NCBI GenBank assembly: GCA_949358305.1
Contig: OX442314.1
Location: 53,949,369-54,013,368, forward strand
Reading direction: 5' to 3'
DNA: 64,000 nt
DNA from: Strigamia acuminata
Taxonomy: Eukaryota > Arthropoda > Chilopoda > Geophilomorpha > Linotaeniidae
Shown: positions 5,048 through 49,358 of the stretch, piece by piece
How positions within the stretch are numbered: the first letter of the stretch is position 1
Layout: every line of letters starts with the position of its first letter
Made by a program: the position numbers and the translations under genes
The notes under the pieces: model-generated
What the model was told of the DNA's origin: nothing
Database searches by the model: none
The model's input: the letters and a program-made list of their open reading frames with translations, nothing else

Positions 5048-6658
5048 ATGGTCAAGAAGATACCAATTAAAAAGCGGCGAATTGTGATTCAGTCGAGTTC
5101 TTCGGAGGAAGAAGACACGCCAACAGTCAACCCAACCATCGTAACGGTCCCGGGAGCGCCAAACACTCCTATTGTGCTCGACCAAAAAGGATGGGACATA
5201 TTAACCTGGGCCCGAAACAACCCAGATGCCCTCCCAAAGGAAATTCGCCCAAAGACGGCTGTACCCAAAACGGCGATGGAGGTTACCCAAGAAACCTTCA
5301 TTATACCGAAAAAGGACAGTTTCTCTAAAAGCCACCCTTTACAGCCGATCCATAAACCAAGTACGAGTCGAATGGAAGATTCGTCGACCTCTCATGAGAG
5401 AAGTCTGGACGAGATTGTCAAATTAGAGGCAAATCGAAATCCCGAAGGAAATCGCCACCAAGACAACAAACGCAAACAGCGGGAGTACGTTCATTACGAC
5501 TCACCGCCACCCACGACTTCGCGCGAAGTAGTGTATACTCCCAGATATAATACGGCTAGAGGGAAACGTACGTTTGTGTCCACCAGAGCCCCCAAACTGC
5601 AGCCGATGACTGCTCAACAAAGAGCAGCTAATAAACAAGAAAAGGCACTACGTCGAAAAGCCGCCTGCGATCGTGACTTAGAATTGGGAATTCCACACAA
5701 CAATTTGGAGCTCGCAAAGGGCGAAATACCGTGCCCCTTCTGTTTCGGGGTTGGTTGGATGTCCGGCTCCGGGACAGGGTGCCATTTAGCATCATGCGGG
5801 AATTGTCTCGGATCAAAACGACGATTGAAAATCCAACCCTGGAACCCCAAGTTTGTTTCATTCGTGGTTAAAGGGTTGTTCGATCCAGTACCCCGAAAAT
5901 GGGCAACCTGCCACCTTTGTAAGGCTTTACTATCTAACGATGGCAAAGCTGTATACGAGGATCCCGAATTTATGAATTCGCGAAGAACGCCCCTTGGTCT
6001 TCAAATGGGTTTGGAAAAAATGCCAAGTGTTGTCTGCGTAGATAACGCGACCCAAACGGAAGAAGCCACATTGGTTCCCATGCCAAATATCGCGGAACAC
6101 GGGATTTCGAACGAATTCTTAATCGAACCCTACCAAGTTCCCCCGAACACCAAGATAGGACAGTTATTCGTTTGGGAGGTCGAATACTACTACCCCATCG
6201 TAGCTCGACTTGCGATAATAATTTCTCGCCAATTGATTACGGGTCTTCCCGATCAAATAACGGTAGGATACGTGACCAGGATCATGCAAATGATCTTGAA
6301 TCCACGTCGCGTTGAGGGCTTCAACATTTTGGAGCACCTTTGGAATCTGCTCGTGGGAAAAATCGCAGCTGAGATGAAAAACCAAATATGTGAAGGCTGG
6401 ATTTTGGTTTTGCCCCCGGTGATTGACATCTACGAAGATCTCAAAAAGATGATCGATGAAGAAGACGGATCGACTGATCAGCCTGAAGCAGGGGATAAAG
6501 CACCCGAAACGCCCATCGCCACGGAAGTTGTTGCGACCGCTGCATTTTTCATAGATCGGCAACCGGAAGAACCCCTTCCCGCCAAGAAACGTGGCAAAAA
6601 GTCTTCTTCAAAGGACAGGCAAAAGCCCGCCTCGGAGACCGAAAAAGGTCAAGATTAA
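5048..6658 (+). CDS. ORF3 of Ty3/gypsy family A (536 aa), unknown function, Cys cluster
   Basis: This third ORF sits between pol and the 3' LTR, where env would be, but no signal peptide or fusion/transmembrane pattern typical of an envelope is seen. The N-terminus is basic then acidic (MVKKIPIKKRRIV, SSSSEEE), suggesting a nuclear localisation signal and phosphorylation sites. Residues 229-253 hold CPFCFGVG...C....CGNCLG (C229, C232, C245, C250, C253: CX2CX12CX4CX2C), like a short DnaJ-type zinc finger; another CX2C is at 288-291. The segment from about 370 to 470 looks helical and hydrophobic. The C-terminus is Lys/Ser-rich. ORF3 of families B and C shares the Cys cluster. The ATG is the first after a candidate splice acceptor. 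Zinc and nucleic-acid binding are inferences. Confidence 0.85.
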   Translation: MVKKIPIKKRRIVIQSSSSEEEDTPTVNPTIVTVPGAPNTPIVLDQKGWDILTWARNNPDALPKEIRPKTAVPKTAMEVTQETFIIPKKDSFSKSHPLQPIHKPSTSRMEDSSTSHERSLDEIVKLEANRNPEGNRHQDNKRKQREYVHYDSPPPTTSREVVYTPRYNTARGKRTFVSTRAPKLQPMTAQQRAANKQEKALRRKAACDRDLELGIPHNNLELAKGEIPCPFCFGVGWMSGSGTGCHLASCGNCLGSKRRLKIQPWNPKFVSFVVKGLFDPVPRKWATCHLCKALLSNDGKAVYEDPEFMNSRRTPLGLQMGLEKMPSVVCVDNATQTEEATLVPMPNIAEHGISNEFLIEPYQVPPNTKIGQLFVWEVEYYYPIVARLAIIISRQLITGLPDQITVGYVTRIMQMILNPRRVEGFNILEHLWNLLVGKIAAEMKNQICEGWILVLPPVIDIYEDLKKMIDEEDGSTDQPEAGDKAPETPIATEVVATAAFFIDRQPEEPLPAKKRGKKSSSKDRQKPASETEKGQD

Positions 6659-7020
6659 GCCATGTTCAAAGTTAAAACAATTAGCAGTTTGTTTGTGTGT
6701 TCTGTGATAAAAACAAAAATATAATATGTAACCAGAAAATTCTTTAACGAAGATTTTTGTAAGAAGTGCTTCTTCGTTATACGAAAAGACTTCATGTTTA
6801 TTGTTTTAATAATAACCAAACTATTTTTTATAACCGTCTCTGAAAGGAGAAAATAAAAAAGCATTTTTTGAGCATCCTAAAGGATAAGAACATGTTTATT
6901 AAAAAACACTCGTGGGCCTTATAAATATTGGAAATAAAATATTTATTGACATGGATGAATTTGACACGAATGATATTCCTAAAGAATAACATAAAATATA
7001 AGAGTATATGTTTAGTTATT

Positions 7021-7030
7021 AAGGGGGATG
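7021..7030 (+). promoter_or_regulatory. Polypurine tract, family A copy 1
   Basis: AAGGGGGATG lies directly before the 3' LTR start (TGTGAC) and primes plus-strand DNA synthesis in LTR elements. The 360 bases between ORF3 and this site are AT-rich with no gene. Copy 2 has the same tract at 38872-38881. Confidence 0.75.
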
Positions 7031-8687
7031 TGTGACAAATTAGCAATAGATGGCGCCACTAGTACTAGCGGCAAATTCAACCTCGAACTTACTATTTTAC
7101 ATAGAAATGGTTCACAAAACATATTGTTATGTTTGCTATGACTAAATATAATTTAGATCGATAATATAAAGTTATATTATCAATACTCAATAAGTCAAAG
7201 CAGGTATTCTTGCTTTATCACGGGTACGCGACCTGAAACCCATTTTCAGAATGTATTTCCGTTCTGTGTATCCATTTCCTGTCCCCGGTATCCAGTTCCG
7301 GTTTATGCTAAAAGATTAGCATAATCCCAATTTGCGTCTCCATATCCACTTCCTGCGATACGAGATTGGTGGAACCTAATCCCACCGAGTATAAAACTCC
7401 CTGACAACAGGAAGTAAAGCTAGTTCTTGATTTCTGGTTATTTGGTATGTTCCGCATGTCAAATAACTGTTTCTTACTCAGGGCATGGGCCTACCGGTCC
7501 ATGCATAGCATGGCTCTGCTGAGCCATGCAACCCCCGTCAACTGAAGGCGAAGTTCGGACTGTTAATGTTTCCGTCAAACGGTCTTGCCGAGGAGAAAGC
7601 CTCCCGCATAAGTATCCTCGTGGTCGGACAATAGAGTCACGTGTGATACCAAAGTATTTAGTAACCGTTAGTAGCACTGTTACTGAAAGAGATTGACTCC
7701 ATCACTTGATGGTGCCAAAGCAGTCTGCATGCAAAACATGCAGTTACCGCCAGTAGCACTATGTGTTTGGGAAAGTTATATCTCTTCGGTGATGGTGCCA
7801 AAGCAGTCTACTTATGAGTAGTATCTCAGGTGATTAATTCTGTTGTGCAGAACTGCGGGCTATATCCCCCTGAATACCAGTGCCGTCTCTCACCGCACTG
7901 TTATTTAGGGCACGCGCGATACTGTTCTGCTCAGCAAGGCGAACTTTGACGGCAATTGTGTGTTGCGCTGTTTAATCTTTATTATATCTTGTAGTCGATA
8001 AAAAACCTTAATTGTTTAAACTTGGCAACAAGTTAACAACCGAAGTAAGTCACGAGACTTATTTCACTGTATGACGAATCAAATTCGTAACAATAAATTG
8101 AATACAATTTATTGAGTTAATTTATTAAACTCACAACATCGCGAATTAAATATAATTCGCAAGCGGAACCTTGGCGAATAAATGACTTCATTTATTCATT
8201 ACCAATTTCCAACCCTAGTTGTGGCGGTGCACATGAGTCAACCGCACCTCTCGGATCGAACCAAACCAGCATTACACGGACCATTACACCATACGAACCC
8301 GGAACGCGAACGAAGCAGTTCCATGATTACGGAGCACCGACGGAAGCCGCGAGGACACAGCCAGCCCGGCTACGCATAGATGACATCATTAACTCGGTCG
8401 AGCGGGCGTTTTGCCGTTCCCGAACCCCGGATCACCATTAACCGTAATCATATTATTTTAGGGCTGTTTCACAGCCAATTATTTGTATAGTTTAACTTGT
8501 ATTTAACTTGCCAAATGTCGGCATTAGAATTTGTATAACTCTTAGGATTGATTATATTGTTTAGTAACAATAAATGTCACGTTTTGAGAAACTCTGTTGT
8601 CTTTATTATCTCGTATTTTAATCACTTATTCACGCGACTTATACCCGGTACTATCATGCGATAGGAGTTGTGGTCGTCACCGTCACA
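7031..8687 (+). mobile_element. 3' LTR of family A copy 1 (1657 bp)
   Basis: The LTR begins TGTGAC and ends GTCACA, a perfect 6-bp terminal inverted repeat, and aligns along its length with the two LTRs of copy 2 (26554-28218; 38882-51385 net). A TATAAAA box is at 7390-7396. An AGATGGCGCC motif lies near the left end (7048-7057). Downstream are two adjacent hairpins (7483-7529) and an imperfect repeat of about 100 bp containing the phrase GGTGCCAAAGCAGTCT twice. The partner 5' LTR is outside the window, so no target duplication can be read. Confidence 0.9.
7483..7529 (+). other. Twin hairpins in LTR A transcript
   Basis: Two stem-loops lie back to back, each with a 9-bp stem and a 4-nt loop: 7483-7504 (GCATGGGCC / GGTCCATGC, one G-T wobble) and 7508-7529 (GCATGGCTC / GAGCCATGC). 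They sit about 90 bases after the TATA box, so in the R/U5 part of the RNA. The 5' LTR of copy 2 has the same pair at 27003-27049 with a Watson-Crick pair in place of the wobble. Confidence 0.6.
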
Positions 8688-11954: not shown

Positions 11955-11957
11955 AGT

Positions 11958-15779: not shown

Positions 15780-18700
15780 CGTCGCTCGAAGAGTGATTGT
15801 GCCGTGGCCCCTGTCGTCGTCCCCAAGAAAGATGGCAGATGGAGGTGTGCCATGGACTTTCGCCCTATCAACGCGCAAACGATGCCCGACGTGTATCCCC
15901 TCCCAGATATTGATAACATCTTTTCATATTTGGGCGGGGCTAAGTGGTTCTCCATAATAGATGGACGTGAAGCGTTTCATCAGATCGGCGTTAGGCCAGG
16001 AGATGAACGTTTTCTCGCTTTTATCACGCATCGCGGACTCTACGAGTATGTCCGCATGCCTTTTGGACCAATAAATGGCCCTGCAACACTGCAACGCGCT
16101 ATGAATCTTACGCTTGCGGAGTTTCTTTACAAATGCGTCTTTGTTTACATCGACAACATTATTGTCTTTAGTAAAACATTTGAAGAACATGTAGAACATC
16201 TGAAGCAAGTTTTGACACTTCTTGACGCGGCAGGATTCACGATGAATGCCGGCAAGACAGAGTTGTGTAAGCGTAGCCTTGAAGTGTTGGGTCATATTGT
16301 TGAAGAAGGAAAGATTCGTCCTAATCCGAAAAAGACCAGCGCGATCCAATTATTTCCCGCGCCGACTAACGTCAAAGAGTTGCAGCGCTTTAAGGGCATG
16401 ATTGGTTACTATTCTTCGTTTTTTCCGGGGTACTCGAAGACTTGTGAAGTTTTCAGGCCCTTGATGAAGAAGAACGCGCCATGGAATTGGACGGATGGCT
16501 GTCAAGCAGCGTTCGAGTATCTACGGGACCAAGTTGCAACGTCAACTTTGCAGCGGAGGTTTCCTGACTGGTCGAAGCCGTATATTCTGCAGACAGACGC
16601 GAGCTACTCAGGCTTGGGTGCTGCGTTGATGCAGTTGGATAATAACGGCATCCGTGTGCCAATTGCATTTGCTTCACGCGCTTTAAATAGTGCGGAAAAG
16701 AATTATAATGTTACGGAGATCGAATGTCTAGCTGCTGTTTGGGCAGTTAAGCGTTTCCGCAGTTACTTAGAACTTATGGATTTTTACCTTGAGAGCGATC
16801 ACAAGTGTTTAAAATGGCTTTTTGCTCAGCGCGAACCAAAGGGCAGATTGGCTCGATGGATTCTGTCAATGTCAGACTTTCGGTTTACATTTCTGCATTG
16901 CAGTGGCACAAGTAATCGTGTCGCTGATGCGTTGAGCAGGGCTCCTGTAGATCCAGCCATTGAAATTGGCGATGATGATTGTCCGCTCGTTGATGATGCG
17001 ACATATTGTGCGTTCTTTGACGATTTCGCGAGTTGGCCAACCATTGAGATGGTGGAGCTTGACGAGCATTTCGTGCCAAAACCATCTGGCTCAAAGATCG
17101 TTAACGCGGCCAAACTTCGGAAGAAATCGCGTATTCTTCAAAAGAAGCGCGAGTTTGAGGAGTTGGAAACGCTTGAGTTGTTTGGGGATTTAAACACCCG
17201 ACCCCCCAAACCCCCCGGCCCCTCAAGGGGGGGTAGTGTGCCGGCCGACATGGAAAATGCCGTGTTCGGTGCACACCAGCTCTCCGGTGTAAGTACGCCT
17301 CCAGCTGCCTTGCCGCCAAAAAGGCGTGTTGGAAGGCCCTGTAAGGTCAAAGTGGTTCCTTCTGATCCTGTGCCTAAAAGGAAAAGAGGACGGCCACCAA
17401 AACAAAAACGTAAAGTTGGAAGACCCAAAAAAATTGTATCACCTGCAAGAAGTGAGCATTCGTCTTCACCAGCGTCACCAGTTTCGAATAGAGAAAAATC
17501 TGGTAGCGAGCGATTTTTGAGTGACCATAGTTCCGACGAATATCGGACTACGGTGCCACCTTTGCCGGCGCGACCAAATACGCGTTCGAGGCAGACTCAA
17601 CAACCTTTGGTGGATGGCCAAGTCTCGCCATACGAATCCGAAGATCTGGATGAGGATCGACCAGCTGAGCATCCGGCTTACGAGCTTTTGCCAACTCAGA
17701 AGAGAATGAGGGAAGTTCAGTTGGCTGATAGTTGGGCGAAGGGTATTATAATGTATCTGGATACTGGGCATTTGCCGCCTGACGAAGACGAGGCTGAGAA
17801 AATTAAAAAGCAATCTGTTGACATGGCCTTGTATCATGGGCTTCTGTGTAGGTACCCGCCAGTAGCAATTGGCCAACGCGCTGAATCGCGTCGTATTTAC
17901 TTGCCAGAGCCTTTGAGACGAATTTATTTTCACTGCCTTCACTTCCCGCCAACTTCTGGCCACCTCGGAATTGAAAAGACCATGATGCGTTTAAAGACGC
18001 GTGTTTTTTGGCCAGGGATGAAGAAAGATGTGGCGGAGTGGATCAAAGTATGCGGGCCATGCCAGAGAGCAAAGGTCGAACGGCGTTTGCCAATGGGAGA
18101 AATGGAGACGGCAAAACCACGCCGTCGTTTCAGAACCATCTACGTCGACTACTTTGGGAAAAAGTTGAAGTCTAGCCAGGGTAATTGCTACGCGTTCGTG
18201 ATGGTGGATGCGGCCAGCAGATGGGTTGATGTCCGCCTCACCGAAGCAGCGGATGTTCCAACTACAATTGCGCAAATTGAGGCATTTGTGCAACGTTGGG
18301 CCTTCCCAAAGACTTTAATTAGTGACAATGCGCCTACTTTTCGTTCTGCGCGTTTTCAAGCGCACTGTGCGGGAATGGGCATTGTAAATAAGTACATATC
18401 TGTGTATCATCCGCAAGGAAATTTGGCGGAGCGCCTGAACCAGTCACTGAAGACCTGCATTCTCGCGTACATCGACGAGCACGTGAATTGGGACCGTCAT
18501 ATTGGCTACTTCATTTTGGCCATTAACGCTAGCTATCAAACATCGCTGAAGTTCTCACCATATATGATGATCGTTGGACAGGAAGCGCGTTATCCGGGCG
18601 ACCTCGACAGCGACACCGACGACGGGGATCCGCTCCCGCCGGATGAGGCGAGGTATTTGCATCGATACATGCTACGCGTCGGAGCTGAGGCGCGGAAGAA

Positions 18701-25188: not shown

Positions 25189-25190
25189 TA

Positions 25191-26553: not shown

Positions 26554-28218
26554 TGTGACAAATTAGCAATAGATGGCGCCACTAGTACTAGCGGCAAATT
26601 CAACCTCGAGCTTACTATTTTACATAGAAATGGTTCACAAACATATTGTTATGTTTGCTATGACTAAATATAATTTAGATCGATAATATAAAGATATATT
26701 ATCATTATTCAATAAGATAAAGCAGGTATTCTTGCTTTACCACGGATACACGACACGGAGCTCATTTTCGGAAGGTATTTCCGTTCTGCGTATCCATTTC
26801 CTGTCCCCGGTATCCAGATCCGGTTTACATTAAGGATTAGCATAATCCAACTTTGCATCCCTGTATCCACTTCCTGCGATACAGGATTGGTGGAATTTAA
26901 TCCCACCAAGTATAAAACTCCCTGACAACAGGAAGTTAAGTTAGTCTTGTTTTCTGGTTATTTGGTATGTTCCGCATGTCAAATAGCCGTTTCTTACTCA
27001 GGGCATGGTCCTACCGGACCATGCATAGCATGGCTCTGCTGAGCCATGCAACCCCCGTCAACTGAAGGCGAAGTTCGGACTATTCATGTTTCCGTCAAAC
27101 GGTCTTGCCGAGGAGAAAGCCTCCCGCATAAGTATCCTCGTGGTCGGACAATAGAATCACGTGTGATACCAAAGTATTTAGTAACCGTCAGTAGCACTGT
27201 TACTGCAAGAGATTGACTCCATCACCTGATGGTGCCAAAGCAGTCTGCATGCAAAACATGCAGTTACCGCTAGTAGCACTATGTGTTTGGGAATGTTATA
27301 TCTCTTCGGTGATGGTGCCAAAGCAGTCTACTTATGAGTAGTATCTCGGGTGGTTAATTCTGTTGTGCAGAACTGCGGGCTATATCCCCCTGAATACCAG
27401 TGCCGTCTCTCACCGCACTGTTATTTAGGGCACGCGCGATACTGTTCTGCTCAGCAAGGCGAACTTTGACGGCAATTGTGTGTTGCGATGTTTAACCCTA
27501 ATTTATTTTGTAGTTGATAATAAACATTAATTGTTTGAACTTGACAACAAGTAAACAACCGAAGTAAGTCACGAGACTTATTTCACTGTATGACGAATCA
27601 AATTCGTAACAATAAATTGAATACAATTTATTGAGTTAATTTATCAAACTCACAACCTCGCGAGTTAAATATAATTCGCAAGCGGAACCTTGGCGAATAA
27701 ATGACTTCATTTATTCATTGCCAATTTCCAACCCTAGTTGTGGCGGTGCAGTTAAAAGTCAACCGCACCTCTCGGATCGAACCACGAAGCATTACACGGA
27801 CCATTACACCAGATACGAACCAGGAACGCGAAAGGACGCGAAGGAACCAGTTCCACGATTACGAAGCGCCGACAGAAGCCGCGAGGACACAGCCAGCCCG
27901 GCTACGCGTAGATGACATCTTTTAACTCGGTCGAGCGGGCGTTTTGCCGTTCCCGAACCCCGGATCACCAATAACCGTAATGTTATTATTTTAGGGCCAT
28001 TTGGCCAATTTATTTGTATAGTTTAATTTGTATTTAACTTGCCAAATGTCGGCATTAGTTTATGTATAACTTTAGTAATTGATTGCATTGGATAAAACCA
28101 ATAAATGTTATGATTTGAGAAACCATTCTTGTCTTATTTTATCTCGTATTTAATCACTATTTGCGCGACTTATACCCGGTACTATCATGCGATAAGAGTT
28201 GTGGTCGTCACCGTCACA
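26554..28218 (+). mobile_element. 5' LTR of family A copy 2 (1665 bp)
   Basis: The LTR runs TGTGAC to GTCACA. AGATGGCGCC is at 26571-26580, the TATA box TATAAAA at 26911-26917 and twin hairpins at 27003-27024 and 27028-27049. The 3' LTR has the same net length and differs at only a few positions. It should contain the promoter and the start of the genomic RNA. Confidence 0.9.
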
Positions 28219-31164: not shown

Positions 31165-31166
31165 AA

Positions 31167-38881: not shown

Positions 38882-39666
38882 TGTGACAAATTAGCAATAG
38901 ATGGCGCCACTAGTACTAGCGGCAAATTCAACCTCGAGCTTACTATTTTACATAGAAATGGTTCACAAACATATTGTTATGTTTGCTATGACTAAATATA
39001 ATTTAGATCGATAATATAAAGATATATTATCATTATTCAATAAGATAAAGCAGGTATTCTTGCTTTACCACGGATACACGACACGGAGCTCATTTTCGGA
39101 AGGTATTTCCGTTCTGCGTATCCATTTCCTGTCCCCGGTATCCAGATCCGGTTTACATTAAGGATTAGCATAATCCAACTTTGCATCCCTGTATCCACTT
39201 CCTGCGATACAGGATTGGTGGAATTTAATCCCACCAAGTATAAAACTCCCTGACAACAGGAAGTTAAGTTAGTCTTGTTTTCTGGTTATTTGGTATGTTC
39301 CGCATGTCAAATAGCCGTTTCTTACTCAGGGCATGGTCCTACTGGACCATGCATAGCATGGCTCTGCTGAGCCATGCAACCCCCGTCAACTGAAGGCGAA
39401 GTTCGGACTATTCATGTTTCCGTCAAACGGTCTTGCCGAGGAGAAAGCCTACCGCATAAGTATCCTCGTGGTCGGACAATAGAATCACGTGTGATACCAA
39501 AGTATTTAGTAACCGTCAGTAGCACTGTTACTGCAAGAGATTGACTCCATCACCTGATGGTGCCAAAGCAGTCTGCATGCAAAACATGCAGTTACCGCTA
39601 GTAGCACTATGTGTTTGGGAATGTTATATCTCTTCGGTGATGGTGCCAAAGCAGTCTACTTATGAG

Positions 39667-40289
39667 TGTGACCGGCTGCCCGATCAGTCCGTTCACTTAC
39701 CTGCAACACACGGCGCTTCCACGGCTCTCGCGCACCTCGTGTGTTTCTCGCGCGCACCTGACGCGGTCCCCCGCGCCAGGTGGAGCTGATGGTCGTTGGC
39801 TCCGCCAATTGGGAACCGGAAGTGCCCTTCCGGAAGTGGTCGGCCCCGCAGGAGGCCCAGAGAGTTCTCTTGCAACCAGCGTGGCGAACGGTCGCTTCTA
39901 CGATCGCTCTTCCACACTGGCAATCATGACGAATCCGATTGGCGTGGCGACTCTGTCGCCCGCCGGGACTTGATAGTCCGTGTTCCCCGCGCCTGTCCTA
40001 CGTTCTCCGTGAACGTAGCGACGACGCGGCCGAACAGTATTCAGACCACGCGTGTCATTCGGCCAATGGCCGCCGTGCCACGCGGTCTTGTTAGGGATGG
40101 CTGTTTCTCAGCCATCGCATTGGGAAATGCACTGTAGAGACACCACATCATACCCCTAGACATAATAAAGCTTACCTTAAACTAAACTTGTGTCTCTTGT
40201 GTATTTCGGAAGTGTATTTTATCGTGTGTGTTGTGTCCAGCGTCCCGTGGCTCTCCCCCGACCACGTGGCGTCCGTCCAAACACTCACA
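39667..40289 (+). mobile_element. 5' LTR of element C (623 bp)
   Basis: The LTR runs TGTGACCGG to ACTCACA and is much richer in GC than family A. An AATAAA polyadenylation signal lies near 40163, within CATAATAAAGC. It has relatives in reverse orientation at 12275-12601 and 62172-62761. Confidence 0.9.
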
Positions 40290-40291
40290 AT

Positions 40292-40309: not shown

Positions 40310-42588
40310 TGTTGAACTCTCTCGCGAAATTTTTTTTCTATTCACTGATTGTGTTATACACAGTATTGTTTAGAAAAAGAGCTTTTCTTTTCAACAGAGG
40401 GGGAAATTTCTTGAACATGGTTGTGATAGGGAATCAGCAGGCGAAAACGGCCGCAAATCGCTGATTTTGGACCCTAACTTGACAAAATTTGTGGCTGTGC
40501 ATGTCCAGCTTGCCTGGGTAATGGCAAGCAGGGACTTACATTGGCCACACTGTCCAACGGTCTTCTATTCTTTTCTAGCTCAGCCTAAAAAACTGAGTGG
40601 TTGGGAGAGGAATAAAATTCCAAATCTTCTTATTATTTTCTATTTCTTGGTGCGTAGCCCAAGTAAAATAGTGGAACAGTCTGCAGCGGTTTGAACCCGA
40701 TTCGAGGAGGAGGCGCGCTGGCGGCCACCAGCAAACCAAAATCCCACGGGGGAAAGACTGGCATAATCCAATTACCACGCTGCAATACCCAGTTCCATTA
40801 TGGGCCGGGCGAGGAGTCGATGTGAACTGAGCTTTGGGTGACACCAATTTTTTTGTACGGACTTTTAGTCGGCGTCAAACCAGGTTGCTATTACAGGGAA
40901 GTTGGCCTATGGAAACATTCACTTGCAATGAATGGGGTTTATTAAAAATTTGATCTTAATAGCAGCGAGGTGCTAGCAAGCATTAGGATAACTGGCAGAA
41001 AAGTTGCTGTGGCGATTTATCAGCTATGAATCGTCCGTGGCTGCTCGAGGTGCTCGATACCAGGTTCACATGGATCATTATCCTACCCTGTCCCGTGTAC
41101 TGGTCAGAAGCAGTTGCAAGTTGATATATACAACCCAAGAACTGTGGAGATTGGGACCCGGATAGCGGGGCGAGCTGCCGGAGGTACGGGGATACCGATG
41201 GTGAAGTGCTCAAATGGTGCAGAGAGTTCGTTAGGGCGTAGGAACGATATCTGTGCGTTCAGGTGGCTACCAGCTTTGAAAAAAGACTGGGAATCCAGCC
41301 TGTAACTTTATTTTCCTGAATTATATTCACCTTTTTGATTTCCAGGAGTTGTTTCAGTTTGTGCGAGGACTGTGCTTGAACCACAGTTTTAGGCAATCTT
41401 GACACTCTTGGGAGTTTATTATTTAAAACATCTTTCTGTTTTTTCTCTTTCTCTTCAATTTTTTACTTCCCTATCTATGATTTTCATGGTTCTTTGGGAC
41501 ACCACACCTGACAGTAGGATGCATGGTCACTTTAGGATTATTAGGTTTTCCTGACGGTATGATACATGTAATCCGCATGACCGGGCGGTATACAGCACCA
41601 AATGGAGGGTGATATGGCTTCGAGATGGCAGCTGAAGGGTGGGACCCAATAGCAACTAGGAACAGGAGGTGCATTGCCTTCCTCACTTTTTAAGTGCATC
41701 TAATTGTTCCACAAAAACAACCACTTCATTGGGATGTGCAGATATCCCAGTGTGGGCACGTTTCTGTCGAGAAGGCAGCCTCGTGCAAACTGAGGTGAAG
41801 GTTTCCGTAAAAGGTACGAGCGGGCGCAGTTGCGCTGATCTCTTGGGGCAGAAGGAGAGATTAACAACATCCCCGTGCACATCTGCAACTTCTGCTAAAG
41901 AAATGGTAATTTTTTGAGTGTATTTTTTCTTATATAAAAAACCACCCAGTATTTTATTTATTCCTTTTTTTTTTTTCTATTTTTCTTGTCTTTCTTCCTT
42001 TGATTATCGTTGCTGTGCGACAAGAATCAATTTTTGTGACTGCGCACTTGTGCGATTAACTTTTATTGTTGCTTGCGACGATAAAAAACTCTGTTTGAAA
42101 AGATTCGAAGTTCTATGGACACGATTTCGTGCTTTTATTGGCACAAAAGTCATGTTTTCATGGAATCAGACCATTTTGATCTGGTTCAGAACTTCTAGTT
42201 CCAAACAAAGGTCACTATTGCTTTTCGAAATGTTGTTTTTTCTGCAGAAATGTGGAAATTTAGATATTTATTGGTCAAAATCTTTATTTTCTTCATAAAA
42301 TTCCAAGATGGCGGCCCGAAAACAATAGAAAAACATGTGGAGATTACAGAATTTTCGAGTAAAACCGGAATTGAGATATTCTCAAAACTGTTGGGAATTC
42401 TGGGAAATTAATTCTGTGAATAAATTTCGATTTTCTACCAATTGGAGACAAGGGGGGGGAGTGACATCACTAATCCCTCTCTCCAGAATGGCTACTTTAG
42501 CCCGAACTACTGCTCTCTTATTGGGTTTGAGTTAATCTCTCTCATCCATTTTGTTTGCTGCGGTCCTGCTCTTGGGCACATTCAGTCA
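40310..42588 (+). other. Long leader of element C
   Basis: About 2.3 kb lies between the primer site and the first gag ATG, unusually long. The ORFs in it are short, and none looks like a known protein. A full YY1/PHO-type site CAAGATGGCGGCC is at 42304-42316. A strong splice donor ACAG|GTAAGA lies just after the first gag ATG (G of GT at 42608). It may contain packaging signals or an older insertion; I see no element ends. Confidence 0.45.
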
Positions 42589-44253
42589 ATGCCATACACA
42601 AGGACAGGTAAGACCACGTGGAATTCACCAGCAAGTAGTCTTTCCACACAAGCAACCGAAGCAAACACGGCAAATTCAGACAATTCGCCTCTCGATTCTT
42701 CAGACGACGAAACAATCAACATGTCTCACAACAAACAAAAGACGTTAGATCAGGCCATGCTTGAAACTACGTGCCACATTTTTGATTTGAAAGTTGAAGA
42801 AATGACGTCTTATGCGGTTTGGGAAACTACTCTTTTAGATGTAGCCAACCATATTGTAGAAACGCAAGATAAAGCTGATGTTGCAATGCAACAATTAGAT
42901 AGAACTCGTGCAGAATTAAACACAGCGCAAACAAAGATTGAGGAAATCAATGATCAACTCTTTCGCGCAAAGAATTCATTACGGGAAATGGATTCGGTTA
43001 AATTAACCAACAACAGTTTAATGAACCTATTAGCTCAACAAAAAGCTGTTGTGGACGGAGTAGTAGCTGCGGGCCAAGCAAACGCGGCGGCCCGAGCTTT
43101 GCTACCAAATCCACCGGCGGTTGTCACCACAGCAAATTCTGCTATAAATTCGACGACTGTCAGCGGTACTACACCATTGCTTACAACGGGTAATCCGTTA
43201 CTTTTAGCATGGGGTGACAAATACACCCGCAAGACTGACCAACCCATGCCTCCGTCTAGACCTATGGACGAGGTAGAGTTGAGTAAGAGGGTGAAGTCGA
43301 TTGGATTAGAAGCCTTTTCCGGCGACAAAACAAAATCGAAGGCTTTCATGATTGATTTAAAACGGTCTCTAAGATTTGCAGAACCATATATCAACCAGGT
43401 ACTAGCCGAACACTTGTTCAAGTTTTTCAGAGGCGACGCAGCCACATGGTTCTCGTCTCATGAGAAAACTGACTGGGAAAGCTTCGAACACGAATTCATA
43501 ATTCATTTTCGACCCAGCGACACGTTGCTACTGGCAGAAATTGCCAAAATGCAGCAGCTGTCCCACGAGTCTGCCACTCAGGTGGTATTACGACTAGAAA
43601 AGCTGTATTCTCAGCTAATGAATCCGGTTCACGAGAGTCAACAGCTCCAAAAGGTGCTGTCGATCTTACGACCGGCCGCGAAAACCATGGCAATAACTGC
43701 ATTAGATGCAGATAATTCCTGGGCGGCTCTGAAAAGAGCTTGTATTGCCACAGAAGCATCTACTTTGAACGTGGAAACTGTGGCAAATGCAGCAATAATC
43801 GAGGCACAAAAGACAGAATCTGTCGCACAAACCTCGAAACTTATTTCAAACTCTCAGCAAATGGTAGCAATATCAAATGCTGCTGGTGTTGAAAAAACAA
43901 AGTTTGTCCCTTATGGATTAAGAAATCCAAGCAATCGGACATTATTTCCAACACCAAAAAACGCTGCAAATTCAGCAACAAAAGGTGCTGAAAATACAGA
44001 AAAAGCACTAGTCCCGAGCAACAAACTTAAGGATTATGCAACTAGACCTCGCAATGGTGGTTGTTGGGGCTGTGGAGGTGGACACTTTGAGAAGGATTGC
44101 CCTCACAAAGTCGAAGCAGCCAAGGCAGCAATTGAATCCATGGCTTCCGCCCAACAGAGCCTCATGCAGGCCATGCTAGCTGCCAGTGAATTTGGCGCTT
44201 GGCCACCAATGACGGGAAACGAGGAGGAGCAGTCGCCAGAGACAACCGAGTAA
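42589..44253 (+). CDS. gag: Gag of element C (554 aa)
   Basis: The first ATG is at 42589; a second candidate, MSHNKQKTLDQ, is at 42721 and may be the real start because a splice donor lies between them. An N-terminal coiled-coil-like region (DQLFRAKNSLREMDSV) precedes the retrotransposon Gag core (FSGDKTKSKAFMIDLKRSL ... FFRGDAATWFSS ... FEHEFIIHFRPSD). Near the C-terminus is a zinc knuckle CWGCGGGHFEKDC (CX2CX3HX4C, a spacing seen in some Ty3/gypsy lineages). It overlaps pol by 40 bases; pol is reached by -1 frameshifting at 44214-44220. It is intact. Confidence 0.9.
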   Translation: MPYTRTGKTTWNSPASSLSTQATEANTANSDNSPLDSSDDETINMSHNKQKTLDQAMLETTCHIFDLKVEEMTSYAVWETTLLDVANHIVETQDKADVAMQQLDRTRAELNTAQTKIEEINDQLFRAKNSLREMDSVKLTNNSLMNLLAQQKAVVDGVVAAGQANAAARALLPNPPAVVTTANSAINSTTVSGTTPLLTTGNPLLLAWGDKYTRKTDQPMPPSRPMDEVELSKRVKSIGLEAFSGDKTKSKAFMIDLKRSLRFAEPYINQVLAEHLFKFFRGDAATWFSSHEKTDWESFEHEFIIHFRPSDTLLLAEIAKMQQLSHESATQVVLRLEKLYSQLMNPVHESQQLQKVLSILRPAAKTMAITALDADNSWAALKRACIATEASTLNVETVANAAIIEAQKTESVAQTSKLISNSQQMVAISNAAGVEKTKFVPYGLRNPSNRTLFPTPKNAANSATKGAENTEKALVPSNKLKDYATRPRNGGCWGCGGGHFEKDCPHKVEAAKAAIESMASAQQSLMQAMLAASEFGAWPPMTGNEEEQSPETTE

Positions 44254-44264
44254 CTGACGACTGC
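44214..44264 (+). promoter_or_regulatory. -1 frameshift signal, element C
   Basis: The heptamer G GGA AAC (44214-44220) is in the right phase of gag (acg gga aac). Eight bases later, GCAGTCG (44229-44235) can pair with CGACTGC (44258-44264), with a 22-nt loop that contains the gag stop. The pol frame is -1 and open here. This is a canonical retroviral-type slippery site; the stem is inferred by eye. Confidence 0.65.
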
Positions 44265-47200
44265 GCTCTTACCATTATTTTGGTTCCAACAATAGAAGAT
44301 ATGGAAGACTCTTTATTTGATGTTTCATCACCCAAAGAGCCAGACCCGCGTATTGTTTTCTCTACGAAACCGGAAATTGATCACGTAAACGTTGCACTGA
44401 AATCTGGAAGGAGTATTACTCCACTACCTTACATCAAAGCAACGTTGAATGGACTAAAGGTCACTGCTCTGATGGACACTGGGGCAACCCATAGATACAT
44501 CAGTGGTGGTATGCTTAAAAAGCTAGATCTTCTACGTTTTATGACTCCATTTTTAACAAACAGAGTTGTATACACTGGGGACAGACCTACACGTCCAATT
44601 GGGACCATCACAATGCCACTTAAGTGGCAAGGTGGCGAACTCCCTGTAACATTTACTGTTCTTCCATCAGCTTCAGAATTCATCCTGTTAGGCTGCTCTT
44701 GGATAATGGAAAATAGGATTGTTATCAATCTAACACAGAGGGAATATTTCCACCTTGATTTCCCGCATGAAACGTTTCCTTTCGACGACCCACCATCGCC
44801 GGAAGAAATGGGAAATGCAATAATGGATAAATGGGATGCATTGGTTACAGAATCAAAAAATCCCTCTGTCTCCTCAGCCGAATTAAGTGAGAGACTTTTA
44901 GCTCGAAGCAATTTGTCAGCAAAACAGAGATTTCAAATCTCACAACTTGTGAATAAACACAGACATGTGTTTAGTGACAAAGCTGGTTGCCACCCCACGT
45001 TGGAACATCCAATTCCAACTGGAGATGCACCTCCATTTAAATGCAAAGATAGACCAATGAATCCCAAAAAAGCTGAGATTTATCGGGAATTGGTTGCCGA
45101 ATTGCTTAGAGATGGTTGGGCTGAACCTTGCGAAGGAAGTTACAAGAACCCTCCAGTTATTGTGGCTAAAAAAGATGGCGGTTACCGCCTTTGTATTGAT
45201 TTTCGTTGGCTGAATAAAATCACAATTAAGGACGTCTACCAGATGCCCTCAATTTCCATGATTTTGGCCTGTTTAGGTGGAAAAAAGTTCTTTTCTACTT
45301 TGGATTTGACTAAAGGTTATTACCAAATAAAGTTGAAGCCAAGTGATAAAAGGAAGACTGCTTTCTCCACTTCTGATGGGACGTACCAGTTCACCCGTAT
45401 GCCTTTCGGTCTGTGCAATGCACCCAGTGCGTTCCAAAGAATGATGGACCAAGTGCTTGGAAAAGCTCAACACAAGTGGGCTCTCGCATATCTTGATGAT
45501 ATCATCATTTTCAGCGACTCATTTGAAGAACATCTTCAACATCTTGATGACATTTTGTCAAAATTAGATGCAAACAAGCTAACAGCAAGTCCATCAAAGT
45601 CATTTCTCTGCCCAGAGGAATTAAATTTTCTTGGATTCACAATGTCAAATGGGAATTATAGCCCAAACAATGACAAAGTGGAAGCTATCATAGATTATCC
45701 AACTCCTTCCAGTGTAAAGCAGCTACAACGCTTTATTGGAATGGTGGGTTTCTATGCCGCTTTGATTCCAAAACTGAGTATCACCCAAAAACCATTTTTT
45801 GCCCTCTTAAAAAAGGACGTCAAATGGCAGTGGTCCGAAGAATGCAATACTGCGTTCGAGTATTTGAAGAATCAACTTGCTGTAGGAATTATGCTGCCTC
45901 TGCCTGATTTTGCACGCAACTTTACCATCCACACGGATGCAAGTGGCGGCGGGCTCGGAGCTGTCCTGATGCAACTTGATGACCATGGTGCTTTAAGACC
46001 AGTGGCTTATGCCAGCAGAACTCTGCAAGGTGCTGAAAACAACTACAGCACCACTGATTTGGAATGTTTAGCTGTGGTTTGGGCTGTTGATAAGTTCAAA
46101 CCATACATTGAATATTCTGAATTCCAGGTTGAGACAGACCATCATGCTTTGAGATTTCTCATGACGATGGAAAATCCAGCCGGCAGACTGGCTAGGTGGG
46201 CAATGAAATTGCAAAACGAAAATTTCACCATCAAGTACAGAAAAGGCACCGACAATCAAGTCGCAGATGCCCTGTCTAGAGTCTCCCTTGATAACGGCAA
46301 TCCATTAGAAGGCAAAGCGACATTAGAAGAGGTTATGGAGCCTGTTGCTCTGGCTTATCTCTCCAATGAAATTGACGACTCTATGAGTTTTGAAAACATT
46401 ATTTCACAGCAACGTGCTGACAAACATCTTTCCAAATTAATCGAATGGTTAGAATTGGGTGATGACCAACCTCGTCCAGAACTCCCTAAGTTCTTGGAGG
46501 ACAAACAGTACGACTGCACTCTCACGAGAAAAGGAATGCTTATCATTTATGCACCCTTTAAAACTGATTTCTTTGTAGAAGAAGAAGAGGATTTGGGGAC
46601 TGGATTTAAAATCTTTATCCCACCATCCCTGCAATTGACAGCACTTCAACTAATTCATGATCATCCAATGGCTGGACATGGAGGAATTGAGGTGACTTTA
46701 GAACGATTGAAGAGAGTTTATTTTTGGCCTGGTATGCAAAAAGATGTAAAACATCACGTAGCTAGCTGCGACCGCTGCCAGCGTTGTAAACCAATCCAAA
46801 GAAAGCCAAAAGGACTAATGATCCCAACTTCCCCAAAGATTGGTCGGTTTGAAAAGATAGGAATTGATTTAATAGGTCCACTTCCTAGAACATCAAATAG
46901 AAACAGATTCATTTTAGTCATAGTAGATTATGCCACAGGCTGGATGGAAGCCACACCGCTAAGATCTTCAAAAATGGTTGTAATCGCACCAATTTTGAAA
47001 CGATTCTTTAGCAATCACGGGTGCCCTCGCTTCATGTTGAGCGACAATGGCCCTCAGTTCATTTCTGACGTTTATCAGACTCTGTGTGATGATGCGGGGG
47101 TTGTTCCACTAAAAACGACGCCTTATCATCCTCAGACAAACCTCACTGAACGTGTTAACAGAAATATTAAGATCATGCTTAGGATTTTTACTTTTGAGCA

Positions 47201-47990
47201 CGATCATTGGGACAGATGCATTGATCAAATTAATTTTGCATTGCACTCTGCACCAAATGTGTCTACCGGTTTTACACCAGCAATGCTGACGTATGGCAAG
47301 GAAATACGACCTTTTTGGGACAATCGAGATGTGTCTTACGACACCCCATTCGACCCAGAAAGACCTTTTGACGCTGCCAGAATGCTAGTCGCTAGACACC
47401 AAACTCTGATTGCTGCAGCTCTTAAAAATAAGAGTCTGGCCCAAGCAAAACAGAAAGGATATTACGACCGACACCGCAGTGACGAGACATTCGAGGTTGG
47501 AGATTTGGTTCTGCTAAAAACTCATCCCCTGTCCAATGCTGCTAATCGGTATGCTGCATCCCTCGAAGATCGCTTTGAAGGACCATATGTAATTACCAAA
47601 GTTTACAATCCAAATGTATATGTTTTAGCTAAACCAATAACTTTACAAGTTAAAGGCTCTTACAATATTGTACAATTGAGAAGGTTCATTCCTTCGGAAG
47701 AAAAAGCTCAGTGGCCTATTCAAGACAAGGATGATGAAGAAGTTCCTGAGAACCAACCTGCAAATACTGGAGCAGCAACAATCTTGCCACAACCAGTACG
47801 ACCAGTGGATACGGATATCGCAATCAAATTGCCAACACCCGTAAAACCTTGGAGAAATCCAAAGAAGAACAGGAATTTGCCCCTGCCGAACATGGATTTG
47901 CAAAAACCCACGGCAGCGTGGCCAAAACCGAATTTGAATTCAAAAAGACCTCAAAGGAATCACACAATACCAATACGATATCGTGATTGA
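44214..47990 (+). CDS. pol: Pol of element C (protease, RT, RNase H, integrase)
   Basis: The frame is open from the slippery site to TGA. Protease has DTGA (codon GAC at 44475-44477). RT has YRLCIDFRW and the intact catalytic YLDD (45487-45498). RNase H has TDASGGGLG. Integrase has the zinc region HPMAGHGG...CDRCQRCK and the D, D, E residues (IDLIGP, LSDNGPQF, NLTERVN). The C-terminal tail is Pro/Lys-rich. About 1258 codons are read after the slip. No lesion is seen, so it is probably functional. It is clearly Ty3/gypsy and related to but distinct from family A, which shares the same domain order and frameshift strategy. Confidence 0.95.
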   Translation, partial: GKRGGAVARDNRVTDDCALTIILVPTIEDMEDSLFDVSSPKEPDPRIVFSTKPEIDHVNVALKSGRSITPLPYIKATLNGLKVTALMDTGATHRYISGGMLKKLDLLRFMTPFLTNRVVYTGDRPTRPIGTITMPLKWQGGELPVTFTVLPSASEFILLGCSWIMENRIVINLTQREYFHLDFPHETFPFDDPPSPEEMGNAIMDKWDALVTESKNPSVSSAELSERLLARSNLSAKQRFQISQLVNKHRHVFSDKAGCHPTLEHPIPTGDAPPFKCKDRPMNPKKAEIYRELVAELLRDGWAEPCEGSYKNPPVIVAKKDGGYRLCIDFRWLNKITIKDVYQMPSISMILACLGGKKFFSTLDLTKGYYQIKLKPSDKRKTAFSTSDGTYQFTRMPFGLCNAPSAFQRMMDQVLGKAQHKWALAYLDDIIIFSDSFEEHLQHLDDILSKLDANKLTASPSKSFLCPEELNFLGFTMSNGNYSPNNDKVEAIIDYPTPSSVKQLQRFIGMVGFYAALIPKLSITQKPFFALLKKDVKWQWSEECNTAFEYLKNQLAVGIMLPLPDFARNFTIHTDASGGGLGAVLMQLDDHGALRPVAYASRTLQGAENNYSTTDLECLAVVWAVDKFKPYIEYSEFQVETDHHALRFLMTMENPAGRLARWAMKLQNENFTIKYRKGTDNQVADALSRVSLDNGNPLEGKATLEEVMEPVALAYLSNEIDDSMSFENIISQQRADKHLSKLIEWLELGDDQPRPELPKFLEDKQYDCTLTRKGMLIIYAPFKTDFFVEEEEDLGTGFKIFIPPSLQLTALQLIHDHPMAGHGGIEVTLERLKRVYFWPGMQKDVKHHVASCDRCQRCKPIQRKPKGLMIPTSPKIGRFEKIGIDLIGPLPRTSNRNRFILVIVDYATGWMEATPLRSSKMVVIAPILKRFFSNHGCPRFMLSDNGPQFISDVYQTLCDDAGVVPLKTTPYHPQTNLTERVNRNIKIMLRIFTFEHDHWDRCIDQINFALHSAPNVSTGFTPAMLTYGKEIRPFWDNRDVSYDTPFDPERPFDAARMLVARHQTLIAAALKNKSLAQAKQKGYYDRHRSDETFEVGDLVLLKTHPLSNAANRYAASLEDRFEGPYVITKVYNPNVYVLAKPITLQVKGSYNIVQLRRFIPSEEKAQWPIQDKDDEEVPENQPANTGAATILPQPVRPVDTDIAIKLPTPVKPWRNPKKNRNLPLPNMDLQKPTAAWPKPNLNSKRPQRNHTIPIRYRD

Positions 47991-48194
47991 CCACTAGGGG
48001 GAACACCTTCGAATTCAAAAATCTGTTCGACCAATCACGAAACGATTACATAGCGTCTGCGGCCCTTGTGCGACGCACCCAAAACGTTTTTTTATAATAC
48101 TTAACAAAGGAATCTGCACGAATTCATCATTCTCGCAGCGACAGGCAACTAGCAAGTTACTTTCCATTCTTTCTCGACTTCAAAACTATTCGAA

Positions 48195-49358
48195 ATGGAT
48201 AAATATCCAAAAGGAACCCGCACGAAATGTCCAGTATGCTTAGGAAAGAGATTCACGCGACACGAAAATTGCGCTTTTACGCAATGTGGGAATTGCCTGG
48301 GGAAAGGCCACGTGGACGAAAACCATCAACTGGAACGCTTTTTCGAAATCAACATGACCGTCCCCGGTGTGCCGATCTCAGACAAAAAACAAGAGATTAG
48401 TTGGATGCACGTACGTACACGCGCCGAACGAGACGCAGCTGAGAAGGCATTTTATGCCAAATCGGTCGCGTCAACTTCCACCAGACCGAACCCGAAGACT
48501 GTCCGATCGTCGAAAGAATTATCGACAAAGACGTCAACGAAAAAAATCGCTCAATCATCGGAGAAAACGACCAACATGAACCAAATGTCTCGTAAATCGA
48601 CAAAGAGTTCGAAACCGTTTGTGAAAAAGATGACTGAACCGAAGGAATCGAATGGCAATAATTTGCCAAAAGCTGCGCCCGCCAAAACGGCGACTGCAGC
48701 CAGATCTGAAATCTCCCCAGCTCTCGTAAAAATAAGAGAGACGCTTCGTGCCCAAAATCCAACCTGGTCGAAAGACAAAGTGGTGACGATAGCGAAGGAA
48801 AAGCTAAAGTGGCAGAAAGTTGCGGATTATAAATTGGAACGAAGACTTCGCGCCGCTCTTGCCGCAGTTGAACGACCCGCGTGCTCGAACTCATCGGAAA
48901 AATCGCCGACGGAATTAGAATCGACCTGGAAATTGAAATTTCCTACAACTTCACTGCCACACACAATCACGTCGGGTGAAGTAATCGAAATGACAGAATC
49001 TGTCGAAACCCCGGCGGTCGTGATGCCACCACTTTTCGGCGAACGACCGACAAACTTGACTTTCCAAGTGAGTCCGATTAATGACTCCAAGGAGGTCGCC
49101 GTCGAGGATATGACTAATACGCTCGACGCCATGGAAATCGAGCCATCCGAACCAGCTCAGCCGATGATCGGGGAACCGCGAACGTCTCCTCCGCCCCTTC
49201 CGCCGCAAACGAAAACGGAAAAGAAAACCAGATCCGCCGCAAAGAAGGAAAAGAAAGTTCGACGAAACTTGGCGAAAGAACTGCCACACGTCGAAGAAGA
49301 CAAACGCGAGGACGACGAAGATTTACCGCCAACACCCGGAAAATCGCTGGAATCGTAA
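48195..49358 (+). CDS. ORF3 of element C (387 aa), Cys cluster, Lys-rich
   Basis: This third ORF begins 205 bases after pol; ATG 48195 is the first ATG after a possible acceptor CATTCTCGCAG near 48140. The N-terminus carries CPVCLG...C....CGNCLGKGH at residues 12-37 (C12, C15, C26, C31, C34: CX2CX10CX4CX2C), nearly the same spacing as family A. A helical stretch near 175-225 (ALVKIRETLRAQNP...) follows. The rest is low-complexity Ser/Thr/Lys. The C-terminus has KKTRSAAKKEKKVRRN then an acidic tail, likely nuclear. There is no signal peptide or membrane segment, so it is not an envelope. Its intactness in a young element argues that it is used. Function is unknown. Confidence 0.85.
   Translation: MDKYPKGTRTKCPVCLGKRFTRHENCAFTQCGNCLGKGHVDENHQLERFFEINMTVPGVPISDKKQEISWMHVRTRAERDAAEKAFYAKSVASTSTRPNPKTVRSSKELSTKTSTKKIAQSSEKTTNMNQMSRKSTKSSKPFVKKMTEPKESNGNNLPKAAPAKTATAARSEISPALVKIRETLRAQNPTWSKDKVVTIAKEKLKWQKVADYKLERRLRAALAAVERPACSNSSEKSPTELESTWKLKFPTTSLPHTITSGEVIEMTESVETPAVVMPPLFGERPTNLTFQVSPINDSKEVAVEDMTNTLDAMEIEPSEPAQPMIGEPRTSPPPLPPQTKTEKKTRSAAKKEKKVRRNLAKELPHVEEDKREDDEDLPPTPGKSLES

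What the first reader, a model, noticed from the sequence alone, without database searches (positions are those of the whole stretch)
5048..49358. Three different Ty3/gypsy families share a non-envelope ORF3 with a DnaJ-like cysteine cluster
Families A (5048-6658, and split at 36085-38522), B (20544-22334) and C (48195-49358) all carry an ORF after pol. The proteins are dissimilar overall but each has a CP[FV]CxG...CGNCLG / C..C.G.G cluster: A CX2CX12CX4CX2C, C CX2CX10CX4CX2C, B CX2CX12CX2C. None has a signal peptide or envelope-like membrane pattern. All have basic, Ser/Lys-rich regions suggesting nuclear action. Conservation of position and motif in elements with different LTRs and primers points to an old, maintained accessory protein, perhaps a zinc-binding factor for RNA packaging, nuclear import or silencing escape. 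It is intact in the young element C.
Basis: partly seen in the sequence, partly recalled or inferred. Interest (0 to 1): 0.88.

Follow-up and report, generated by a model that had tools for sequence, protein, structure and literature searches.

The report
Swapped zinc-knuckle gene in arthropod retrotransposons
Several families of retrovirus-like jumping genes in an arthropod genome carry an extra, carefully preserved gene with a small zinc-binding-type motif, and at least one group of them seems to have traded this gene between elements like an exchangeable cartridge.

Summary
Confirmed and extended. Each post-pol ORF (A 5048-6658; A2 in two pieces; B 20544-22334; C 48195-49358) carries C-x2-C-x-G ... 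C-x2-C-x-G. Only these 4 of 1224 stop-to-stop frames in the window match, against 0 in 300 shuffles of the 27 long frames. All three are multicopy and mostly open in this 237 Mb genome: A (52 full-length matches, 49 without stops) with a 38% relative A'; B (13, 10 without stops) with B' and B''; C with newly found relatives D, E and F. Copy pairs of A, E and F show dN/dS 0.08-0.27, so ORF3 is a maintained gene. C-F share one homologous protein. A resembles it only around the Cys cluster; B shows little beyond Cys/Pro/Gly, so common origin of all three is unproven. Unexpectedly, D and E pol are 95% identical but their ORF3s only about 30%, and pol and ORF3 trees reject each other (AU p=0.0003 and 0.0016): ORF3 behaves as an exchangeable cassette. 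In C-F a conserved CCAAT/TATA/Inr-like block precedes it. Function is inferred: a nuclear nucleic-acid-binding accessory factor.

The parts
5048..6658 (+). Family A ORF3, 536 aa, Cys4(+1) knuckle at residues 229-253, basic N-terminal part, C-terminal part conserved with A'
322..4452 (+). Family A1 pol (RT, RNase H, integrase; protease matches only sub-threshold)
7031..8687 (+). Family A1 3' LTR (TGTGAC...CACA)
26554..28218 (+). Family A2 5' LTR (TSD ACGT before it)
   Evidence: 6 differences in 1670 aligned positions against its partner
29700..31139 (+). Family A2 gag with its own CCHC zinc knuckle
36085..36960 (+). First piece of A2 ORF3 (frame runs on into the insert)
36915..37737 (+). 823-bp TG...CA insert with TSD GGTT that interrupts A2 ORF3 (solo-LTR-like)
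37738..38522 (+). Remaining piece of A2 ORF3 (the listed frame 37584-38522 begins inside the insert)
38882..39666 (+). A2 3' LTR, first part, split by element C
50502..51385 (+). A2 3' LTR, second part
15804..19190 (+). Family B pol frame beginning at RT (no gag or protease found upstream by tblastn with C and A queries)
20544..22334 (+). Family B ORF3, 596 aa, double CxxCxGxG at residues 72-95 followed by LRR..FxIWMRR
39667..40289 (+). Element C 5' LTR (623 bp); TSD TGAG at 39663-39666 and 50502-50505
42442..44253 (+). Element C gag (Retrotrans_gag; CX2CX3HX4C knuckle)
44199..47990 (+). Element C pol (PR, RT, RNase H, integrase)
48029..48132 (+). Conserved promoter-like block in the pol-ORF3 gap (GACCAATCAC; TACTTAA; TCATTC with its A 31 nt after the TACTTAA start)
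48195..49358 (+). Element C ORF3, 387 aa: N-terminal Cys4 knuckle (12-34), basic linker, predicted helical hairpin (about 172-226), AVxMPP motif, acidic PPTPGKSL tail
49879..50501 (+). Element C 3' LTR

Best explanation
ORF3 is a separately expressed accessory gene of Ty3/gypsy elements in this arthropod genome. Its product carries a C4 zinc-knuckle-type motif (inferred to bind zinc), lies in largely disordered basic sequence with a few NLS-like patches, and most likely works in the nucleus on nucleic acid or on the host machinery that handles the element's RNA or chromatin, in the manner of a retroviral regulatory or accessory protein. Shown: the gene is multicopy, mostly open and under purifying selection in the families tested; its four Cys are invariant in the rows aligned within each family group; in C-F it has a different ancestry from the neighbouring pol. 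Inferred: (a) zinc binding; (b) nuclear action; (c) in C-F, its own transcript from a core promoter between pol and ORF3 (in A, possibly splicing to an acceptor-like site just before the ATG); (d) swapping of the ORF3 cassette between elements by template switching because ORF3 fits an element to a host factor or silencing system.
For: Open full-length copies: C 13 of 13 and D 19 of 19 (list cut short, 107 of 328 candidates scored); A 49 of 52 and A' 13 of 13 (81 of 669 candidates scored); B 10 of 13 and B' 7 of 7 (73 of 344 scored). dN/dS: A1/A2 0.078 and 0.125; four E pairs 0.10-0.25; two F pairs 0.11 and 0.27. C-F share one protein with invariant C12, C15, G17, N25, C31, N33, C34, G36 and a conserved tail. 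Cassette: over the last 1500 nt of pol D/E are 90.9% identical but 46.6% in the gap and 48.3% in ORF3; C/D are 83.8% in pol, 53.7% in ORF3 and 85.3% in 3'UTR+LTR. C/D synonymous difference is 0.47 in pol but 0.75 in ORF3. Pol rejects the ORF3 topology (AU p=0.000285) and ORF3 rejects the pol topology (p=0.0016). Promoter-like block: invariant GACCAATCAC, longest invariant run 10, reached by 86 of 100000 column shuffles; CCAATCA + TA[TC]TTA[AG] + TCA[TC]T[TC] 28-34 nt apart in 21 of 22 distinct gaps. NLS-like patches, 1-4 per protein by a loose pattern without control.
Against: No RNA, protein or localisation data. The C model is confident only around residues 172-226 (mean pLDDT 45.9) and the A model is useless (35.0), so a zinc fold is not modelled. 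The promoter motifs were defined after looking at these sequences; a textbook Inr (TCA[GT]T[TC]) is absent in E (0 of 7 distinct gaps); the A gaps hold no CCAAT (the B gap holds three CCAAT/ATTGG), and a TATA-Inr pair appeared only in A2, not in A1 or B. Some partial or distant copies have stops (3 of 16 partial A rows; at least 3 partial B' and 2 B'' rows). In 3 of 9 D loci (L014, L015, L017) ORF3 is open but pol is only fragmentary. Trees rest on 8 chosen sequences, C and F one each. Gag of C and of A2 already has a knuckle, so need for another is not evident. Net charge is near zero in A, A' and B (+8, +5, -2).
Confidence: 0.45

Rival explanations
1. ORF3 is a structural or packaging protein that travels with the particle: its knuckle binds the element's RNA as a second nucleocapsid, or it is a Gag partner.
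For: Zinc knuckles are the usual nucleic-acid-binding module of Gag (general knowledge); basic, Ser/Lys-rich sequence with net charge +13 to +21 in C, D, E and F.
Against: Gag of A2 and C already has a knuckle of CCHC type; ORF3 is C4, not CCHC; net charge is only +8 in A, +5 in A' and -2 in B. Exchange of ORF3 against a nearly unchanged pol fits a host-facing role better than a packaging role, but gag was not compared across families.
Confidence: 0.22
2. The low ORF3 identity among C-F is not exchange but fast divergence in place (relaxed or positive selection).
For: Identity falls gradually over the last 150-450 nt of pol rather than at one sharp point.
Against: Synonymous sites are also far more diverged in ORF3 (pS 0.75) than in pol (0.47) for C/D; the C/D 3'UTR+LTR is again 85.3% identical; the trees conflict in topology, not only in length; recent pairs show purifying selection.
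Confidence: 0.12
3. The three groups (A/A', B/B'/B'', C-F) acquired unrelated ORF3s that converged on a CxxCxG knuckle.
For: No significant similarity outside the Cys region by blastp or hhalign; the knuckle starts at residue 12, 72 or 229; B shows little beyond C/P/G (884 of 2000 shuffles; 126-444 of 1000 for four B-group sequences against the C-F profile).
Against: Same post-pol position in A, B, C, D, E and F; A against the C-F profile exceeds most C/P/G-preserving shuffles (41 of 2000 reach it; A' 38 of 2000), and E against the A profile 5 of 1000; C-F against the B group gives hhalign P=3.9e-5, probability 70.5%.
Confidence: 0.45
4. ORF3 is a decayed envelope gene.
For: It lies where env lies in insect errantiviruses (PMC12992720, passages seen).
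Against: No long hydrophobic stretch, no Pfam envelope match, and the frames are conserved, not decayed.
Confidence: 0.03

Closest known systems
sORF1/sORF2 accessory ORFs of MDG1-group LTR retrotransposons (PMC11952523; abstract and two sections read)
   Same: Non-envelope accessory proteins of insect Ty3/gypsy elements with low nonsynonymous rates; sORF1 is subnuclear.
   Different: They are about 110 and 70 aa and normally lie upstream of gag (sORF2 downstream of pol in 7 of 22 lepidopteran consensus sequences, per the paper); sORF2 has a transmembrane segment; the sections read mention no Cys knuckle. ORF3 here is 387-596 aa in the window, post-pol and C4.
Errantivirus env-F, the third ORF of insect gypsy elements (PMC12992720; passages only)
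   Same: Third ORF after pol in Metaviridae.
   Different: Env-F has a signal peptide, furin site, fusion peptide and TM and comes from a spliced RNA; no TM-like stretch was seen in ORF3; furin site and fusion peptide were not looked for.
DnaJ central zinc domain (PF00684) and Anti-TRAP (PF15777)
   Same: CxxCxGxG spacing; they are the best, sub-threshold Pfam matches of several ORF3s.
   Different: PF00684 13.5-18.5 bits against a cut-off of 32.7, Anti-TRAP at most 20.3 against 32; two Cys pairs, not four; no J-domain match.
Retroviral regulatory/accessory proteins such as Tat and Rev (recalled, no call)
   Same: Proposed working analogy: a small, basic, Cys- or Arg-rich nuclear factor made from its own transcript.
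   Different: No sequence relation was tested; the function here is inferred.

Membership tests
Ty3/gypsy (Metaviridae) element | PR-RT-RNase H-integrase order in pol | tested here: met
   C: all four over or near cut-off in that order. A: RT-RH-IN over cut-off, PR matches only sub-threshold. B: RT-RH-IN only, no PR found
Ty3/gypsy (Metaviridae) element | Paired LTRs with short TSD | tested here: met
   A2 (TSD ACGT) and C (TSD TGAG); not met for B in this window
Errantivirus envelope (env-F) | Transmembrane segment | tested here: not met
   Hydropathy maxima 0.84-1.49 over 19 residues in 7 proteins; no Pfam match. Upstream exons not tested
DnaJ/Hsp40 central domain | Four CxxCxGxG repeats and curated Pfam score | tested here: not met
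   Two Cys pairs; 13.5-18.5 bits against 32.7 where matched
DnaJ/Hsp40 | J domain | tested here: not met
   No J-domain match among the ORF3s scanned
MDG1-group sORF2 (FAST-like) | Short protein with a transmembrane segment | tested here: not met
   387-596 aa in the window, no TM-like stretch
MDG1-group sORF1 | Nuclear, helix-turn-helix-like, upstream of gag | tested here: inconclusive
   Position differs; a helical hairpin is predicted in C (about 172-226); localisation not testable
Gag CCHC zinc knuckle | CX2CX4HX4C | tested here: not met
   ORF3 core is C4; Gag of A2 and C has its own knuckle
C/D/E/F ORF3 family (defined here) | Whole-length homology and invariant C4 knuckle | tested here: met
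   for C-F; A and B not met beyond the Cys region
Zinc-binding domain | Bound metal or common fold | not testable with these tools
   Models too weak at the Cys region

The most novel reading that the evidence does not exclude
An ancient zinc-knuckle ORF3 superfamily spans at least three Ty3/gypsy groups in arthropods and circulates between elements as a self-contained expression cassette (own promoter plus coding sequence), so that pol lineages repeatedly change their host-facing nuclear factor, much as retroviruses exchange env, but inside the nucleus rather than at the membrane.
Probability: 0.3. Interest if true: 0.85.

Novelty: new variant of a known kind. Interest (0 to 1): 0.62.

Why it matters
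Insect LTR elements are usually sorted into env-bearing and env-less kinds. A large, selected, env-unrelated third gene, exchanged between elements separately from pol, would be a different route of adaptation: changing a nuclear or RNA-level factor instead of a receptor-binding one. If it turns out to counter silencing or control RNA export, it would give arthropods a system comparable to retroviral regulatory genes. It also warns that classification by pol hides the gene that differs most between elements.

Tried and rejected
Envelope remnant: rejected. Captured chaperone: rejected. HMG-box idea for the C helical hairpin: HMG-boxes recur among the Foldseek hits but none of 31 hits reached E<=0.001, and Pfam on one piece from each of C, D, E and F gave no HMG match; dropped. 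Troyka (PMC12440569, abstract and part 1 of the results section): the protein content described there holds no ORF3; dropped. Relatives elsewhere: protein search found none at E<=0.001 for C (8000 candidates scored) or A (5644 candidates); B was not searched there; one IMG/VR scan with the C-F profile gave 17 pattern matches and no relative (it may leave out records near this genome); PDB sequence searches gave nothing useful (two coiled-coil matches to B at E 0.57 and 0.68). Similarity of A, A' or B to C-F just after the knuckle: none beyond shuffles.

Could not be done: a third protein search with the C-F profile (database switched off). Paper searches failed, so the literature check rests on the listings. 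The position of pol next to A', B' and B'' is untested (genome searches not answered), as is a wider search with A' (not completed). The host is only placed as an arthropod, from 54 matches to PF00379, a domain that I recall as arthropod cuticle.
Full report
1. WHAT IS IN THE WINDOW. The window lies in a 237.5 Mb genome (G000) with 54 matches to PF00379, which I recall as the arthropod cuticle domain; the species is not known to me. Element C (39667-50501, 623-bp LTRs with 0 substitutions in 621 aligned positions, TSD TGAG) is inserted in the 3' LTR of element A2 (26554-51385, TSD ACGT, LTRs differing at 6 of 1670 aligned positions). A1 enters from the left edge and ends with an LTR at 7031-8687. 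B is different: its pol frame (15804-19190) begins at RT, no gag or protease was found upstream by tblastn with C and A queries, and it lies between 390-bp inverted repeats, 99% identical, of a foldback-type element. B should not be cited as an element with known LTRs.

2. All ORF3 frames and Cys spacings are as reported. The strict pattern C..C.G-x(6-20)-C..C.G occurs in 4 of 1224 window frames, all four of them post-pol frames, and in none of 300 shuffles of the 27 frames of at least 150 aa. A2 ORF3 is broken by an 823-bp TG...CA insert with TSD GGTT.

3. ORF3 IS A LARGE, MOSTLY OPEN GENE SET. These lists are capped: 107 of 328, 81 of 669 and 73 of 344 candidates were scored. C: 13 full-length matches, none with stops. 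New family D: 19 full-length, none with stops. E: 24 rows spanning query residues 8-386 in one piece, none with stops, plus many split rows; rows not fetched are assigned to E by their identity. F: 6 loci, one with a stop (list cut short). A: 52 full-length matches, 3 with a stop, and 16 shorter ones, 3 with a stop; second family A' at 37-38% identity, 13 of 13 without stops. B: 13 full-length at 94% or more, 3 with a stop; B' at 68-71%, 7 full-length of 7 without stops, but three partial B' rows with stops; more distant B'' with frames mostly of 596 and 671 aa, two rows with a stop. A long pol frame directly precedes ORF3 in 6 of 9 D loci read (L012, L013, L016, L018, L019, L020; fragmentary in L014, L015, L017), 8 of 12 E loci and 1 of 4 F loci. 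For A', B' and B'' this was not tested. A 17-base pattern for C-P-[hydrophobic]-C-x-G has 1177 matches in the genome against 173 for the pattern read backwards (582+595 and 88+85), so further families are likely; these were not read.

4. SELECTION. Nei-Gojobori dN/dS: A1/A2 0.078 (residues 1-277) and 0.125 (C-terminal part); E pairs 0.10, 0.23, 0.22, 0.25 (not independent, three share one copy); F pairs 0.27 and 0.11. C/D and A/A' are saturated at synonymous sites and give no ratio. B was not tested for lack of sequence, and the near-identical C copies were not tested.

5. ANATOMY. C-F: N-terminal C4 knuckle followed by an LExwFxxFM segment, a basic linker, a predicted helical hairpin (about 172-226, pLDDT near 90), an AVxMPP motif, and a LA...PxTPGKSL tail. 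A/A': conserved SSSSeEE N-terminus, knuckle CPFC...CxNC, a further WATCxxCK pair, conserved C-terminal part. B group: PYPVPxL...HPDHP, then CPxCSGWG...ECxxCxGxGxLRR..FkIWMRR. Structure models are poor (mean pLDDT 45.9 and 35.0), and no fold match was significant (0 of 31 hits at E<=0.001). Best Pfam matches are all under their cut-offs: DnaJ central domain, Anti-TRAP, and for A' a C2HC finger (ZNF512_C2HC, 18.6 bits against 27).

6. ONE ORIGIN OR THREE? hhalign gives P=1.6e-4 (probability 51%) for C-F against A/A' and P=3.9e-5 (probability 70.5%) for C-F against the B group, both over the Cys region only, and P=0.011 (probability 4%) for A/A' against the B group. Cys pairs inflate such scores. 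With Cys, Pro and Gly fixed, the C-F profile is matched as well by 41 of 2000 shuffles of A, 38 of 2000 of A' and 884 of 2000 of B. In the larger test the three group profiles gave 20 to 504 of 1000 for A, A' and B-group targets, and 5 to 407 of 1000 for C, D, E and F targets. I read A-C as suggestive and B as open.

7. CASSETTE BEHAVIOUR (new). Pol identity (aa): D-E 95%, C-D 90%, C-E 89%, C-F 80%; ORF3 identity: C-D 40%, E-F 32%, D-E 30%, C-E 28%. DNA identity over the last 1500 nt of pol, the gap, ORF3 (without its last 48 codons) and 3'UTR+LTR as far as held: C/D 83.8, 61.3, 53.7, 85.3; D/E 90.9, 46.6, 48.3, 65.4. Synonymous differences C/D: pol 0.47, ORF3 0.75 (saturated). Trees of 8 sequences chosen from those read (C; 2 D; 4 E; 1 F): pol supports (D,E)|(C,F) and rejects (C,D)|(E,F), AU p=0.000285; ORF3 supports (C,D)|(E,F) and rejects the pol topology, p=0.0016. 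Exchange of the gap+ORF3 segment (or homogenisation of everything around it) explains all of this; rapid evolution alone does not explain the synonymous sites or the topology. Caveats: C and F are one sequence each and F has a long branch; identity begins to fall in the last 150-450 nt of pol; the LTR history (C/D closest) also differs from that of pol, so more than one exchange is needed.

8. HOW IT MIGHT BE EXPRESSED. In C-F the 204-254 nt gap holds an invariant GACCAATCAC (CCAAT box), then TA[TC]TTA[AG], then TCA[TC]T[TC] 31-32 nt on, before the ATG; 21 of 22 distinct gaps (from 55 held, some the same place read twice) have the set, and the 10-nt invariant run is reached by 86 of 100000 column shuffles. 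The motif set was chosen after seeing the data; the strict textbook Inr is missing in E (0 of 7) and present in C, D and F. A has no CCAAT in its gap but an acceptor-like TAG, pyrimidine fraction 0.73 before it, 4 nt before its ATG in both A1 and A2. So C-F may use an internal promoter and A may use splicing; neither is shown.

9. FUNCTION. With no membrane features, a C4 knuckle, basic and apparently disordered parts and exchange against a nearly constant pol, I favour a nuclear, host-facing regulatory or accessory factor (0.45) over a packaging or structural role (0.22). The nearest functional parallel read here is the nuclear sORF1 of MDG1-group elements (PMC11952523, section read); its sequence was not compared.

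10. NOVELTY. Accessory ORFs in insect Metaviridae are known (sORF1/2, env-F). A C4-knuckle post-pol ORF3 family with cassette exchange did not appear in the listings of the paper searches that worked; later searches failed, and Repbase could not be searched. I therefore call it a new variant of a known kind, with the literature check incomplete.

Noticed in passing
window 8800-9820, 15391-15780, 23876-24490: Foldback-type element with long inverted arms; two inverted arms (99% identical over 390 bp) enclose the B pol-ORF3 segment, as if a retroelement piece had been captured between them.
   Followed up: partly
window 36915-37737: 823-bp TG...CA insert with TSD GGTT inside A2 ORF3, solo-LTR-like.
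   Followed up: partly
window 58102-58741 and 61523-62168: Another direct-repeat pair (93%) enclosing an RT-like frame (59036-59617).
   Followed up: no
window 53461-54636 and 56313-57221 (and some copies beyond): Two tandem arrays with units of about 30 bp and 21 bp; the 21-bp array lies in long open frames on the minus strand.
   Followed up: no
window 55181-55792 (-): Frame with CCCH zinc-finger matches (zf-CCCH_4 above its cut-off), possibly a host gene.
   Followed up: no
window 12274-12477: LTR fragment related to the C and F LTRs, in reverse orientation.
   Followed up: no
L014, L015, L017: D copies with an open ORF3 but only fragments of pol upstream: possibly non-autonomous elements that keep ORF3.
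   Followed up: no
L043 frame 1422-4667: An E copy in which the end of pol and ORF3 lie in one open frame of 1082 codons.
   Followed up: no
L009, L010, L011: Degraded, partial relatives of C ORF3 without a long intact frame.
   Followed up: partly
G000 genome-wide: 1177 matches to a CP[hydrophobic]CxG codon pattern against 173 in the reversed control, with recurrent variants not assigned to A-F: probably further ORF3 families.
   Followed up: no
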